Origin: Methylotenera sp. L2L1
Lineage (GTDB): Bacteria; Pseudomonadota; Gammaproteobacteria; Burkholderiales; Methylophilaceae
Assembly: GCF_000744605.1 (NCBI RefSeq)
Contig: NZ_JQMG01000001.1
Location: forward strand, 558,001 to 622,000
Direction of reading: 5' to 3'
Length of the DNA: 64,000 nt
Of this stretch, positions 38,498 through 44,075 are shown in pieces. Position 1 is the stretch's first letter; the number at the start of each line of letters is the position of its first letter. A program made the translations under genes and the position numbers. The notes under the pieces were generated by a model. The model was given only the letters and a program-made list of their open reading frames with translations, searched no databases and was not told the DNA's origin.

Positions 38498-39118
38498 ATG
38501 GCTAAAGATTGTTGTCATGACGGGTGCAGTAACCCCACGCTACTAACGCCTAAATATAAGAAAATACTTTGGGTTGCGTTAGTCATCAATGCCACAATGT
38601 TCTTCGTTGAAATTTCAAGTGGGCTTCATGCGCAATCCGTATCACTGATGGCGGACGCAATCGACTTCTTTGGTGATGCCATGAACTATGGGATATCTCT
38701 AGCCGTGCTATCCATGAGCTTTGCGTGGCGCGCTCGTGCCGCGCTGTTTAAAGGACTATGTATGGGCAGTTTTGGCTTATTGATACTTGCCACCACCGTA
38801 TGATCTACCATGCATGGTGAAGTACCAGAAGCCTACACGATGGGGTTGGTAGGTTTTATTGCGCTACTGGCGAATGTAAGCGTTGCTATGATGCTCTATG
38901 CCTACCGTGATGGAGACGCCAACATGCAGTCGGTATGGCTATGCAGCAGAAATGATGCGATCGGAAATATTGCCGTCATGATGGCAGCATTAGGCGTATG
39001 GGGAAGCAAAAGTGCATGGCCTGATCTGATTGTGGCGGTTATTATGGCAAGCCTAGGTGTTTCTGCGGCGATGCAAGTAATAAAAAGAGCGAGATCAGAA
39101 TTAAATCATCACCAATAA
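38498..39118 (+). pseudogene. Cation diffusion facilitator-like transporter interrupted by an in-frame TGA
   Basis: A single reading frame of 206 codons is broken by TGA at 38801-38803. The first part starts MAKDCCHDGCSNPTLLTP, followed by FFVEISSGLHAQSVSLMADAIDF typical of CDF zinc/cadmium exporters. The second continues with MHGEVPEAYTMGLVGFIALL and NDAIGNIAVMMAALGVWG. Both flanks are in the same frame with no other damage. The stop falls where a tryptophan (TGG) is plausible, so a single point mutation, a sequencing error or readthrough are all possible. If real, the protein is cut at residue 101 of about 206. Confidence 0.8.
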
Positions 39119-41489: not shown

Positions 41490-41660
41490 CTACTTTGTAA
41501 GAATCAACTTACCCTGATTGGTAAGTCTTAAGCGGTAATCCTCACCAACGTGTTTAATCACCAGCTCGCGCGCACCTGAAAATAACAACTCACTGGTTGT
41601 CACCCTAGCCACAGAGGACTCTGCAACCTTGGTTTCATGTTTTTTTTCATCAAGCATCAT
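41490..41660 (-). CDS. hemP: HemP family small protein, copy 1
   Basis: A 56-residue protein, MMLDEKKHETKVAESS at the start, with the HemP core SELLFSGARELVIKHVGEDY followed by RLRLTNQGKLILTK. The LxxxGK LILTK ending is the family signature. HemP genes sit beside haem or iron uptake genes and, in some species, their product activates a haem receptor. It is the first gene after the perfect Fur palindrome at 41722-41740 and precedes tonB. Confidence 0.88.
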   Translation of the reverse strand: MMLDEKKHETKVAESSVARVTTSELLFSGARELVIKHVGEDYRLRLTNQGKLILTK

Positions 41661-41721: not shown

Positions 41722-41740
41722 AATGATAATTGTTATCATT
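41722..41740. promoter_or_regulatory. Fur box upstream of hemP-tonB-exbB-exbD
   Basis: AATGATAATTGTTATCATT is a perfect inverted repeat (AATGATAA and TTATCATT around TTG), matching the Fur consensus closely. It lies 62 bp before the hemP start, between hemP and the 90-residue gene. Confidence 0.85.
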
Positions 41741-41806
41741 TAGATTTGTCAATGATTTTATGCTTTAGTTGATATCTATGTGTTTGATTTTATTTAATTG
41801 CGCTGA

Positions 41807-42079
41807 CTAATGGATGCTGCAATTAATGGCGGACTGCTGCGCATAACTAGCTTTTTCTTGTTGATACAACGCCAACCTAGTATCCGCATCTGCTAATAAA
41901 GCTTTTAAGGTATGCAATGTGCCAGCATCGATTCTTAAACTAATGGCACCTAGCTCCAGCTCGGCCACATTACAATTTTCGCAAAACACGATCTGGCCAC
42001 TTTCATTTTTAGACAACAAAATACGTAAGCACGATGCTTGATTGCTTGGAGCGTTATCTAGCACTTTGTTAATTTTCAT
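41807..42079 (-). CDS. Small protein of the HemP cluster (copy A of a paralogous pair)
   Basis: A 90-residue protein with a good AGGTG ribosome-binding site before its ATG. Residues about 36-75 (NVAELELGAISLRIDAGTLH and following) align with the 69-residue protein at 43456-43665 (DIVELEIGDTSLRLEVRNFF), so the two are paralogs. It begins 7 bp after hemP copy 2. I do not recognise a named family. Two cysteines (VFCENCNV) could bind a metal, but the paralog lacks them. Confidence 0.7.
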   Translation of the reverse strand: MKINKVLDNAPSNQASCLRILLSKNESGQIVFCENCNVAELELGAISLRIDAGTLHTLKALLADADTRLALYQQEKASYAQQSAINCSIH

Positions 42080-42086
42080 GTCACAC

Positions 42087-42308
42087 CTATTTAGTGAGTA
42101 TCAGTTTATTTTGTTTAGTAATGCGTAAAAAATAAGTTTCATCCTCGTGATCAATCATCACTTCCTTCACATTCGTAAACAGCTTGTCGCTATTCAATCT
42201 TTTTATTCTAGAAATCTTAATGTCATCCTGCGTGCGCGTACTGTCTGTCACAATTGCTATATCAAAACTCATATGTTCTTTAGAGGTTAAATTAGTAATA
42301 ATTTTCAT
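42087..42308 (-). CDS. HemP family small protein, copy 2
   Basis: A 73-residue protein whose C-terminal 40 residues, SDKLFTNVKEVMIDHEDETY then FLRITKQNKLILTK, match the HemP core of copy 1. The N-terminal extension is longer. A start at residue 13 (42272, MSFDIAIV) is possible, since no strong ribosome-binding site favours either. It lies between the S4 paralog and the 90-residue gene. Confidence 0.82.
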   Translation of the reverse strand: MKIITNLTSKEHMSFDIAIVTDSTRTQDDIKISRIKRLNSDKLFTNVKEVMIDHEDETYFLRITKQNKLILTK

Positions 42309-42475: not shown

Positions 42476-43093
42476 CTACACGCGGTTAGCGTAATATTCA
42501 ACCACCAATTGCACATCCACAGGGAACGGCACATCGCTGACCGCTGGCAAGTGCGCCACTTTCACCACTTGCGTGGCCGTATCCCAAGCCAACCATTCTG
42601 GTCGCTCTAAAGATGGCTGCTTAACAGTTTCTACCACCATTGGAATATTTTTACTTTTGGCCTTAACCGTGATTTCATCACCCACATTCAATCTGATCGA
42701 CGGAATGTTAGCTGGCTTGCCGTTTAACATGAGATGTCCATGACTGACTAACTGCCTTGCAGCAATCACCGTAGGTGCAAATCCCGCACGGAAAACCACG
42801 TTATCCATTCTGCGCTCTAGTAACTGTAGTAACCGCTCGCCTGTAGGTTCCTTACCTTTACGTGCGTCCAGTATCAATCTACGCATCTGCGTCTCGGTTA
42901 ACCCGTAATTGAAGCGAATCTTTTGTTTTTCCTGTAACTTCACACCAAAATCAGAGCGGCGCTTGCGCGATGCCTTATTACCGTGCTGGCCTGGCGGCGT
43001 TGGGCGTGCTTCAATGGTTTTACGTGACAATCCAGGTAAATCCACCCCTAATGCACGCATCACTTTTAATCTAGGACCAATAAATCGAGACAT
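42476..43093 (-). CDS. Cysteine-free paralog of ribosomal protein S4
   Basis: A 205-residue S4 protein: MSRFIGPRLKVMRALGVDLP, the TPPGQHGNKASRKRRSDFGVKL motif and the S4 RNA-binding domain (RLDNVVFRAGF-type RRMDNVVFRAGF, then ARQLVSHGHLMLNGKPANI) are all present. No cysteine occurs anywhere, whereas zinc-type S4 proteins have a cysteine cluster in the N-terminal 30-40 residues. It lies outside the rpsM-rpsK-rpsD-rpoA operon, within a Fur-box cluster. It is probably an alternative S4 made under metal limitation. Confidence 0.92.
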   Translation of the reverse strand: MSRFIGPRLKVMRALGVDLPGLSRKTIEARPTPPGQHGNKASRKRRSDFGVKLQEKQKIRFNYGLTETQMRRLILDARKGKEPTGERLLQLLERRMDNVVFRAGFAPTVIAARQLVSHGHLMLNGKPANIPSIRLNVGDEITVKAKSKNIPMVVETVKQPSLERPEWLAWDTATQVVKVAHLPAVSDVPFPVDVQLVVEYYANRV

Positions 43094-43126: not shown

Positions 43127-43438
43127 TTATTGCAATGTGTTATGTGTTGCCATCAACCAATTGTCGTCAGTGCCATATTCACTGACGATTACTTGCCATT
43201 GCTTCACCAAGCGCTCAGCAATATCTTCAATGAGCTTTGTATCGGCGTACTCAGGCGCAGTTAACTTATGAGCCAGCTCACTCGCCAGCACTGCCAACTC
43301 GTGTGATGGCTTCAGTGCATACTGTGTCGCTACACAACAAATGGCAGCCATCAACTCTCTAGACGTTGGCAACTCTGGGTCAAATAGTTCGCTTGGTGCT
43401 TTTAATGCCGATACTTGTTTTTGCATGTTTATACTCAC
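43127..43438 (-). CDS. Unrecognised small protein of the iron cluster
   Basis: A 103-residue mostly helical soluble protein (SRELMAAICCVATQYALKPS, then LAVLASELAHKLTAPEYADT). No signal peptide or membrane helix is visible. I do not recognise its family. It lies 33 bp upstream of the S4 paralog and 17 bp after the paralogous small protein, so it is cotranscribed with them and probably shares iron control. Confidence 0.65.
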   Translation of the reverse strand: MSINMQKQVSALKAPSELFDPELPTSRELMAAICCVATQYALKPSHELAVLASELAHKLTAPEYADTKLIEDIAERLVKQWQVIVSEYGTDDNWLMATHNTLQ

Positions 43439-43455: not shown

Positions 43456-43665
43456 TTACTGCACTTGATGCAATTCAGTTTGCATCACCAACCTTGCCAC
43501 TGCTTTACGCATCATTTCATTCATCATGAAAAAGTTACGCACTTCTAGCCGTAATGAAGTGTCTCCAATTTCAAGCTCAACAATGTCTTTCGCTTTGTTA
43601 TAAAGCACTTTGCAATCTTCATTACCTGTCAGTTTCGCTTGGCTAATAATTAACTGCTTACTCAT
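43456..43665 (-). CDS. Small protein of the HemP cluster (copy B of a paralogous pair)
   Basis: A 69-residue protein from the ATG at 43665 (MSKQLIISQ). A GGAG site lies seven bases upstream and the longer TTG start at 43677 overlaps that site. The central DIVELEIGDTSLRLEVRNFF matches copy A at 41807-42079. It is the first gene after the Fur-like box at 43694-43712. Function unknown. Confidence 0.72.
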   Translation of the reverse strand: MSKQLIISQAKLTGNEDCKVLYNKAKDIVELEIGDTSLRLEVRNFFMMNEMMRKAVARLVMQTELHQVQ

Positions 43666-43693
43666 GACGTACTCCAATCTAGGAATTTAAATA

Positions 43694-43712
43694 AATGATA
43701 ATCATTCTCATT
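43694..43712. promoter_or_regulatory. Fur-like box heading the S4-paralog operon
   Basis: AATGATAATCATTCTCATT contains the perfect palindrome ATGATAATCAT and matches the Fur consensus well. It lies about 29 bp upstream of the first gene of the cluster (start 43665), where binding would block transcription. The rest of the gap to pqqA (43713-44003) shows no other gene. Confidence 0.8.
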
Positions 43713-44003
43713 TGATATGTCAACACATAATTGGCGACTAAATTAGTAAAGTATTATCAACCCCGCTAATTAAGGCATACGACATGCTAGATAGCTTAAA
43801 AATAGAAAATTCAAACAGATGAGTATCACTATCCTATCTACGCTAAATGACAGGCGTCCATCTCATGATTTCACTTAAGTAGCATTCATGAATACAAATA
43901 GCATGTAAATATGCATACAAGCGCACAATGTTTTCAACGAACTAGCAACATCGAAAACCCAATGAAATGCTAGTTCTAAAATTAATTTATACGGAGAATG
44001 ATC

Positions 44004-44075
44004 ATGTGGACATCACCATCAGCAACTGAAATGCGTTTTGGTTTTGAAGTAACCATGTACGTAATGAATAAGTAA
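44004..44075 (+). CDS. pqqA: PqqA, precursor peptide of pyrroloquinoline quinone
   Basis: A 23-residue peptide, MWTSPSATEMRFGFEVTMYV and a final MNK, with a GGAGA ribosome-binding sequence about nine bases upstream. The E15-x3-Y19 pair (EVTMY) is the motif whose Glu and Tyr are cross-linked and become PQQ. No pqqBCDE genes are in the window, so this copy is an orphan. PQQ is the cofactor of methanol dehydrogenases, which supports a methylotroph. Confidence 0.92.
   Translation: MWTSPSATEMRFGFEVTMYVMNK

What the first reader, a model, noticed from the sequence alone, without database searches (positions are those of the whole stretch)
42476..43093. Cysteine-free S4 ribosomal protein in an iron-regulated cluster
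S4 is normally in the alpha operon. This extra copy has no cysteine and sits in an operon behind a Fur-like box with hemP genes. Cysteine-free ribosomal paralogs are known for zinc starvation under Zur; linkage to iron genes and S4 would be unusual. The cell may swap S4 to release a metal, or remodel ribosomes when iron is low.
Basis: partly seen in the sequence, partly recalled or inferred. Interest (0 to 1): 0.68.

Follow-up and report, generated by a model that had tools for sequence, protein, structure and literature searches.

The report
Iron-starvation spare for ribosomal protein S4
These methylotrophic bacteria carry a second, cysteine-free copy of ribosomal protein S4 in an iron-uptake operon behind an iron-repressor site, apparently to replace the normal S4, which carries four iron-sulfur-type cysteines, when iron runs out, so that ribosomes need no iron there.

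Summary
Window 42476-43093 (-) encodes a full-length S4 with no cysteine (S4C-). The genome has a second rpsD in the alpha operon with the four-cysteine motif C9-x2-C12-x13-C26-x4-C31 (S4C+); in Thermus that motif holds a [4Fe-4S] cluster. S4C- lies in an operon with hemP genes and tonB-exbB-exbD, and its predicted promoter is overlapped by a Fur box.

45 Methylophilaceae genomes hold both forms. A Fur box precedes S4C- at all 44 relatives' loci with the usual layout. In 8 genomes the alpha-operon S4 is deleted and S4C- is the only S4; there the upstream Fur box and neighbouring orf103 are gone, while 7 of 8 keep a Fur box downstream, before tonB. So S4C- works alone, and Fur control goes with having both forms (probably one event). 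Nannocystis repeats the pattern beside a heme importer. A different knuckle-free S4 sits behind a Fur box with pseudoazurin in another genus of the family.

Best reading: a Fur-controlled, iron-sparing S4 swap, the iron counterpart of Zur-controlled zinc-free paralogs. C+/C- S4 pairs were known; I found no published Fur link. Iron response, ribosome incorporation and the cluster in this S4C+ are inferred, not shown.

The parts
42476..43093 (-). S4C-: cysteine-free ribosomal protein S4 paralog (205 aa)
   Evidence: TIGR01017 221.9 bits, PF00163, PF01479; 0 Cys; 64-98% identical copies at 54 further loci in the family; dN 0.03-0.10 against near-saturated dS
43693..43713 (.). Fur box (AAATGATAATCATTCTCATTT)
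   Evidence: inverted repeat; one mismatch to 7-1-7 consensus; best of its pattern in the genome; counterpart box at 44 of 44 relatives' loci with the same operon
43695..43723 (-). Predicted sigma-70 promoter TTGACA-17-TATCAT; the Fur box covers its spacer and -10
   Evidence: 11 of 12 consensus matches; a consensus match, not proof of a start site
43456..43665 (-). orf73: small protein, first gene of the operon; related to orf90
   Evidence: present only in some relatives
43127..43426 (-). orf103: small helical protein directly upstream of S4C-; present at all 44 operon loci, absent at all 9 sole-S4C- loci
   Evidence: AlphaFold model pLDDT 73; no Pfam family or PDB fold match
42087..42308 (-). 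hemP (hemin uptake protein family), downstream of S4C- with no terminator-like site between
   Evidence: PF10636 63 bits
41807..42079 (-). orf90: DUF6686-like small protein
   Evidence: PF20391 25.4 bits, cut-off 23.9
41722..41740 (.). Second Fur box, on a TTGACA-18-TATCAT promoter (41752-41723, -) ahead of the second hemP
41490..41660 (-). second hemP
   Evidence: PF10636 61.1 bits
40607..41440 (-). TonB
   Evidence: PF03544
39743..40492 (-). ExbB-type proton channel
   Evidence: PF01618
39327..39746 (-). ExbD-type protein
   Evidence: PF02472
39277..39302 (-). Terminator-like hairpin at the end of the cluster
   Evidence: a pattern match only

Best explanation
S4C- is an iron-starvation replacement for the normal S4. 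With enough iron, Fe-Fur sits on the box over the promoter and S4C- is off; ribosomes use the alpha-operon S4C+, whose four N-terminal cysteines hold a [4Fe-4S] cluster. When iron runs low, Fur lets go, and S4C- is made together with HemP and perhaps TonB-ExbBD. New 30S subunits are then built with a metal-free S4, so no iron or cluster-assembly capacity is spent on ribosomes. Because S4 represses its own operon in E. coli (established knowledge), S4C- may also shut off S4C+ synthesis. Shown here by sequence: the two genes, the Cys motif, the box and promoter overlap, the conserved operon, and lineages that live on S4C- alone. Inferred: Fur binding, iron response, Fe-S occupancy of this S4C+, incorporation into ribosomes.
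For: (1) S4C+ has C9, C12, C26 and C31, which align with Thermus S4; the motif was strict in 41 of 41 C+ loci checked (35 Methylophilaceae loci, two of them the same own-genome gene, and 6 Nannocystis). The Thermus site holds Fe4S4, confirmed by long-wavelength X-ray data (PMC6555806; PMC10450194). (2) Fur box at 20-33 bits upstream of S4C- at 44 of 44 relatives' loci with the usual operon; with the fixed literature consensus all 44 reach 11/14, against 77 of 1180 shuffles. (3) Conserved orf103-S4C- with hemP/tonB/exbBD in most genera. (4) Eight genomes lack S4C+; in all eight alpha operons rpsK runs directly to rpoA. There the upstream box and orf103 are gone, and 7 of 8 keep a box at +731 to +805, before tonB. 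(5) Nannocystis, 6 of 6 genomes: S4C+ and S4C-; in the locus annotated, S4C- is divergent from a heme importer (HmuY, heme-type ABC), with Fur-like AT-rich sites in GC-rich DNA. (6) g15: an unrelated knuckle-free S4 behind a Fur-type box with pseudoazurin. (7) A Fur equivalog is encoded in the genome.
Against: No expression, binding or metal data. [4Fe-4S] in S4 is known only from Thermus structures; the same cysteines could hold zinc here, as the older literature assumed. The 8 sole-S4C- genomes form one clade in the tree, so the box loss is probably a single event. The 44 loci are related, so they are not 44 independent tests, and the 20-33 bit scores come from a matrix built on these same sites. 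86 of the 140 family genomes with an S4 hit show no S4C-, so the swap is dispensable. One sole genome (G001) has neither box. The Nannocystis sites score poorly with the Methylophilaceae matrix (-5 to +5 bits) and are only Fur-like.
Confidence: 0.7

Rival explanations
1. Zinc-sparing swap: S4C+ binds zinc and S4C- replaces it in zinc starvation, under Zur, like L31, L36 or S14 paralogs elsewhere.
For: C+/C- S4 pairs have been read as zinc/non-zinc forms (PMC3087516); a second Fur-family protein sits beside a COG0523-type GTPase in this genome.
Against: The box is the classic Fur palindrome and also precedes the second hemP and a FecI-like sigma gene. The neighbours are heme/iron uptake genes in Methylophilaceae, in G011 and in Nannocystis. 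A published search for Zur sites near S4 paralogs found none (PMC3087516). The only L31 in this genome is already the zinc-free form. I did not build a Zur motif for this family.
Confidence: 0.1
2. Ribosome remodelling: S4C- changes ribosome behaviour (accuracy, assembly, antitermination) at low iron, and metal saving is incidental.
For: S4 is a 30S assembly and accuracy protein (established knowledge); S4C- is only about 42% identical to S4C+.
Against: Three lineages recruited a form lacking the Cys knuckle, from two different S4 clades, and each time the resident S4 has the knuckle; Methylobacillus-type genomes use S4C- for all translation. In g15 it is paired with a copper protein, which fits metal saving.
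Confidence: 0.1
3. Feedback regulator: S4C- mainly acts as a Fur-induced repressor of the alpha operon, lowering S4C+ and ribosome synthesis when iron is short.
For: S4 represses its own operon in E. coli (established knowledge); an L31 paralog acting as repressor is the subject of PMC9825181 (title and abstract start only).
Against: S4C- is the sole S4 in 8 genomes, so it must build ribosomes there. No leader-RNA test was made.
Confidence: 0.05
4. Passenger: a horizontally acquired S4 that happens to sit in an iron operon, with no role in the iron response.
For: The gene is mobile over evolution (PMC3087516).
Against: Strong purifying selection, a conserved place directly behind a Fur box across many genera, and recurrence beside iron genes at unrelated sites.
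Confidence: 0.05

Closest known systems
C+ / C- forms of ribosomal protein S4 (Chen, Roberts and Luthey-Schulten 2009, PMC3087516)
   Same: C+ in the alpha operon with a Cys-free second copy outside it; the sole-C- state of Methylobacillus flagellatus is described there.
   Different: They read the pair as zinc/non-zinc, looked for Zur sites near the S4 paralogs and found none; iron and Fur are not mentioned. The Fur box, the hemP-tonB operon and the loss of the box in sole-C- genomes are added here.
Zur-controlled zinc-free ribosomal paralogs (L31, L33, L36, S14 and others)
   Same: A paralog without metal ligands, controlled by a metal-sensing repressor of the Fur superfamily.
   Different: The regulator is apparently Fur, the neighbours are iron genes, the protein is S4, and the metal to be saved is probably an Fe-S cluster.
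[4Fe-4S] cluster of Thermus thermophilus uS4 (PMC6555806, PMC10450194)
   Same: S4C+ has the same four Cys at the same positions.
   Different: The cluster is known only structurally there; here a metal-free partner under an apparent Fur box suggests the cluster matters in mesophiles.
Iron-sparing responses (for example Fur/RyhB-type; cupredoxin or flavodoxin in place of iron proteins)
   Same: Iron proteins are replaced by iron-free ones when Fur is inactive.
   Different: The spared protein would be a ribosomal protein, replaced by direct Fur derepression of a paralog.

Membership tests
Bacterial ribosomal protein uS4 | Passes the curated bacterial S4 equivalog model; N-terminal S4 plus S4 RNA-binding domain over the full length | tested here: met
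   TIGR01017 221.9 bits (cut-off 177.2), PF00163 and PF01479
Bacterial ribosomal protein uS4 | Can serve as the cell's S4 | tested here: met
   Orthologs are the only S4 found in 8 genomes, with S4 deleted from the alpha operon; not shown for the window's own protein
C- S4 paralog (Chen 2009) | Lacks CXXC...CXXXXC and lies outside the alpha operon, while a C+ form lies inside it | tested here: met
Fur regulon | Fur box overlapping the promoter | tested here: met
Fur regulon | A Fur protein is encoded in the genome | tested here: met
   L226: PRK09462 191.4 bits, cut-off 146
Fur regulon | Fur binding and iron-dependent expression | not testable with these tools
   no expression or binding data on hand
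Zur-type zinc-free ribosomal paralog system | Control by Zur at a Zur box | tested here: inconclusive
   The box found is Fur-type; no Zur motif was built for this family; a published search found no Zur sites near S4 paralogs
Metal-sparing ribosomal paralog swap (kind) | Resident copy with metal ligands, paralog without them, in the same genome | tested here: met
   45 Methylophilaceae genomes; 6 Nannocystis genomes
Metal-sparing ribosomal paralog swap (kind) | Paralog enters ribosomes under metal starvation | not testable with these tools
   needs ribosome proteomics
[4Fe-4S] uS4 | Four Cys at positions 9, 12, 26, 31 in the resident S4 | tested here: met
[4Fe-4S] uS4 | Fe-S cluster actually bound in this organism | not testable with these tools
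   needs spectroscopy, anomalous data or ICP-MS

The most novel reading that the evidence does not exclude
Bacteria run an iron-sparing ribosome: Fur directly controls replacement of an Fe-S ribosomal protein by a metal-free one. The trait arose separately in Methylophilaceae (S4 of the myxobacterial-type C- clade), in Nannocystis, and in genus g15 (an alphaproteobacterial-type S4 in one operon with the copper protein pseudoazurin, a joint iron-saving set). This would mean that the Fe4S4 seen in Thermus uS4 is physiological in mesophiles and that ribosomes are a regulated iron pool.
Probability: 0.62. Interest if true: 0.9.

Novelty: new variant of a known kind. Interest (0 to 1): 0.82.

Why it matters
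Ribosomal metal swapping is known for zinc. If S4 is swapped for iron, each ribosome would carry four iron atoms that the cell can choose not to spend; at ten thousand or more ribosomes per cell (my own rough estimate) that is tens of thousands of iron atoms or more. It would give an in vivo role to the Fe-S cluster seen in Thermus S4, answer what regulates at least some C- S4 paralogs (open since 2009, when no Zur sites were found), and offer simple tests in culturable methylotrophs, including a natural experiment between Methylotenera (both forms) and Methylobacillus-type genomes (S4C- only).

Tried and rejected
Contamination or phage origin: rejected. S4C- is on the single-contig own genome and in many complete relatives; for g15, a SelO gene on the same contig is closest to g15 orthologs. 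L198 (G094) was set aside as a likely contaminant alpha operon of another betaproteobacterial type. Extra S4 genes in 9 other Pseudomonadota genomes were not confirmed: one PF00163 hit each. G125 looked like a sole-S4C- genome, but its rpsK is missing too, so it was left undetermined. Function of orf103 and of g15 orf160: no Pfam family, no PDB fold match, not related to each other. The Methylophilaceae Fur matrix does not transfer to Nannocystis. Zinc paralog check: L31 is single and zinc-free, so there is no internal Zur comparison. Plasmid search with S4C- gave no match of 60% identity or more. A literature search for a Fur link to S4 paralogs found none in the held open-access library; subscription papers are not covered. 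The papers on Nitrosomonas europaea Fur and on Myxococcus Fe-S control have no hit for the ribosomal terms searched.

Full report
WHAT IS THERE. Window 42476-43093 (-) encodes a complete S4 of 205 aa without cysteine. It passes the bacterial S4 equivalog model and has both S4 domains. The genome is one contig of 2.64 Mb, 100% complete. It holds a second S4 in the alpha operon between rpsK and rpoA, starting [31 protein letters not shown]. The closest named relatives are Methylotenera. I call the two forms S4C- and S4C+.

LOCAL ANATOMY. On the minus strand the order is: Fur box and promoter (43693-43723), orf73, orf103, S4C-, hemP, orf90, a second Fur box and promoter (41722-41752), second hemP, tonB, exbB, exbD, terminator-like hairpin. 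The first box is a 10-nt inverted repeat lying over the spacer and -10 of a TTGACA-17-TATCAT promoter. The two strongest promoter-like sites of the region, 11 of 12 matches each, are the two under Fur boxes. No terminator-like site lies between S4C- and the first hemP. The box is the only zero-mismatch hit of the Fur-type 22-mer in the genome; other hits lie at the second hemP, at a FecI-like sigma gene and upstream of a gene pair with a TonB receptor. A Fur equivalog is encoded elsewhere.

THE RESIDENT S4. S4C+ has Cys at 9, 12, 26 and 31, matching Thermus S4 position by position. The same strict motif was found in 41 of 41 C+ loci checked: 35 of Methylophilaceae (two of them the same own-genome gene) and 6 of Nannocystis. 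In Thermus this site is called a Zn-finger, but it holds Fe4S4, confirmed by long-wavelength X-ray data (PMC6555806; see also PMC10450194). That this S4C+ binds Fe-S is therefore an inference from homology.

COMPARATIVE TEST WITHIN THE FAMILY. Among 150 relatives plus the own genome, 45 genomes have both forms, 8 have only S4C-, and one (G125) cannot be judged because its rpsK is also missing. By subtraction, the other 86 genomes with an S4 hit show no S4C-. At the 44 relatives' loci with the usual operon (43 two-form genomes plus G125), orf103 is always present and a Fur box of 20-33 bits lies upstream. The matrix was built on these loci, so I also used the fixed literature consensus: all 44 reach 11 or more of 14, against 77 of 1180 shuffled upstream regions. 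The remaining two-form genome, G011, has S4C- in another place, downstream of a TonB siderophore receptor and a PepSY protein, with a Fur-like site before the receptor.

NATURAL EXPERIMENT. In the 8 S4C--only genomes rpsK is followed directly by rpoA. One of them, G062, carries two copies 143 kb apart, which fits the Methylobacillus flagellatus case of PMC3087516. In all eight the upstream Fur box and orf103 are gone, and in seven a Fur box remains at +731 to +805, between S4C- and tonB. Some two-form relatives have both boxes. So Fur control over S4 was lost where S4C- became essential, while control over tonB stayed. This shows that S4C- can serve as the only S4. The eight genomes form one clade (one search holds one member of each of the three genera), so this is probably one event.

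RECURRENCE ELSEWHERE. Nannocystis, 6 of 6 genomes, has S4C+ and an S4C- about 53% identical to ours. In the locus annotated in detail (L084), S4C- is divergent from a heme-uptake cluster: periplasmic binding protein, FecCD permease, heme-type ATPase and HmuY. Its upstream region is about 50-55% AT in DNA of 26-27% AT, with Fur-like sites such as TGAAAATTGATATCA; these are among the best-scoring sites of each 10.6-kb locus, although the absolute scores are low. In nine draft genomes of family genus g15 there is a different extra S4, grouped with Alphaproteobacteria (100/99), also without the knuckle. Eight of the nine have a Fur-type box (12-14 of 14) upstream, and most show the order orf160, S4, pseudoazurin-type cupredoxin. 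Copper for iron and metal-free S4 for Fe-S S4 in one operon fits iron saving. The tree separates S4C- of Methylophilaceae (100/98, near Myxococcota forms) from the C+ clade (100/98), so S4C- is not a recent duplicate of S4C+. Cyanobacterial S4, the donor suggested in 2009, was not in the tree.

FUNCTIONAL CONSTRAINT. Between S4C- orthologs synonymous sites are near saturation while dN is 0.03-0.10. In 396 Pseudomonadota genomes no two-S4 genome outside the own family was confirmed, so the trait is uncommon.

MECHANISM. Most likely: Fe-Fur represses the operon when iron is plentiful; at low iron S4C- is made with the iron-uptake genes and enters new 30S subunits in place of S4C+. Shown by sequence: genes, motif, box, promoter overlap, synteny, sole-S4C- lineages. 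Not shown: Fur binding, iron response, cluster occupancy, incorporation. Rivals are a zinc response, ribosome remodelling, feedback control of the alpha operon, and a passenger gene; each is weighed in its field.

RELATION TO KNOWN WORK. C+/C- S4 pairs and the M. flagellatus case were described in 2009 (PMC3087516). That paper treats the pair as zinc/non-zinc, found no Zur site near S4 paralogs, and contains neither 'iron' nor 'Fur' as a word. No paper found in the held library links S4 paralogs to Fur, but subscription journals are largely missing. I class the finding as a new variant of the known metal-sparing ribosomal paralog swap.

LIMITS. Relatives are not independent samples. The Fur matrix is partly circular, which the fixed-consensus test offsets only in part. 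g15 genomes are drafts; contamination is made unlikely by a SelO gene on the same contig. The Fe-S step rests on one other organism.

Noticed in passing
window 44004-44075 (+): A solitary pqqA (PQQ precursor peptide MWTSPSATEMRFGFEVTMYVMNK, PF08042) lies just upstream of the operon on the other strand.
   Followed up: partly
window 38498-39118 (+): A cation-efflux (PF01545) reading frame is cut by one in-frame TGA at 38801-38803; pseudogene, sequencing error or short split protein.
   Followed up: partly
window 43127-43426 (-): orf103, a conserved helical protein of unknown function, is present at all 44 operon loci and absent at all 9 sole-S4C- loci; it may take part in the swap.
   Followed up: partly
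window 43456-43665 and 41807-42079 (-): orf73 and orf90 are related small proteins flanking S4C-; orf90 is DUF6686-like and many homologs carry a CxxC.
   Followed up: no
L199 6643-7122 (-) and orthologs: orf160, upstream of the alternative S4 in genus g15, has invariant C52, H56, C87, H89, H91 and E94, a possible metal site; no family or fold match.
   Followed up: partly
L265 1501-1743 (+), own genome: The only ribosomal protein L31 is the zinc-free form, downstream of rho.
   Followed up: no
L160 (G029), about +1283 to +2072 from S4C-: An inverted set orf90, orf103, orf73 with its own Fur box lies beside S4C-.
   Followed up: no
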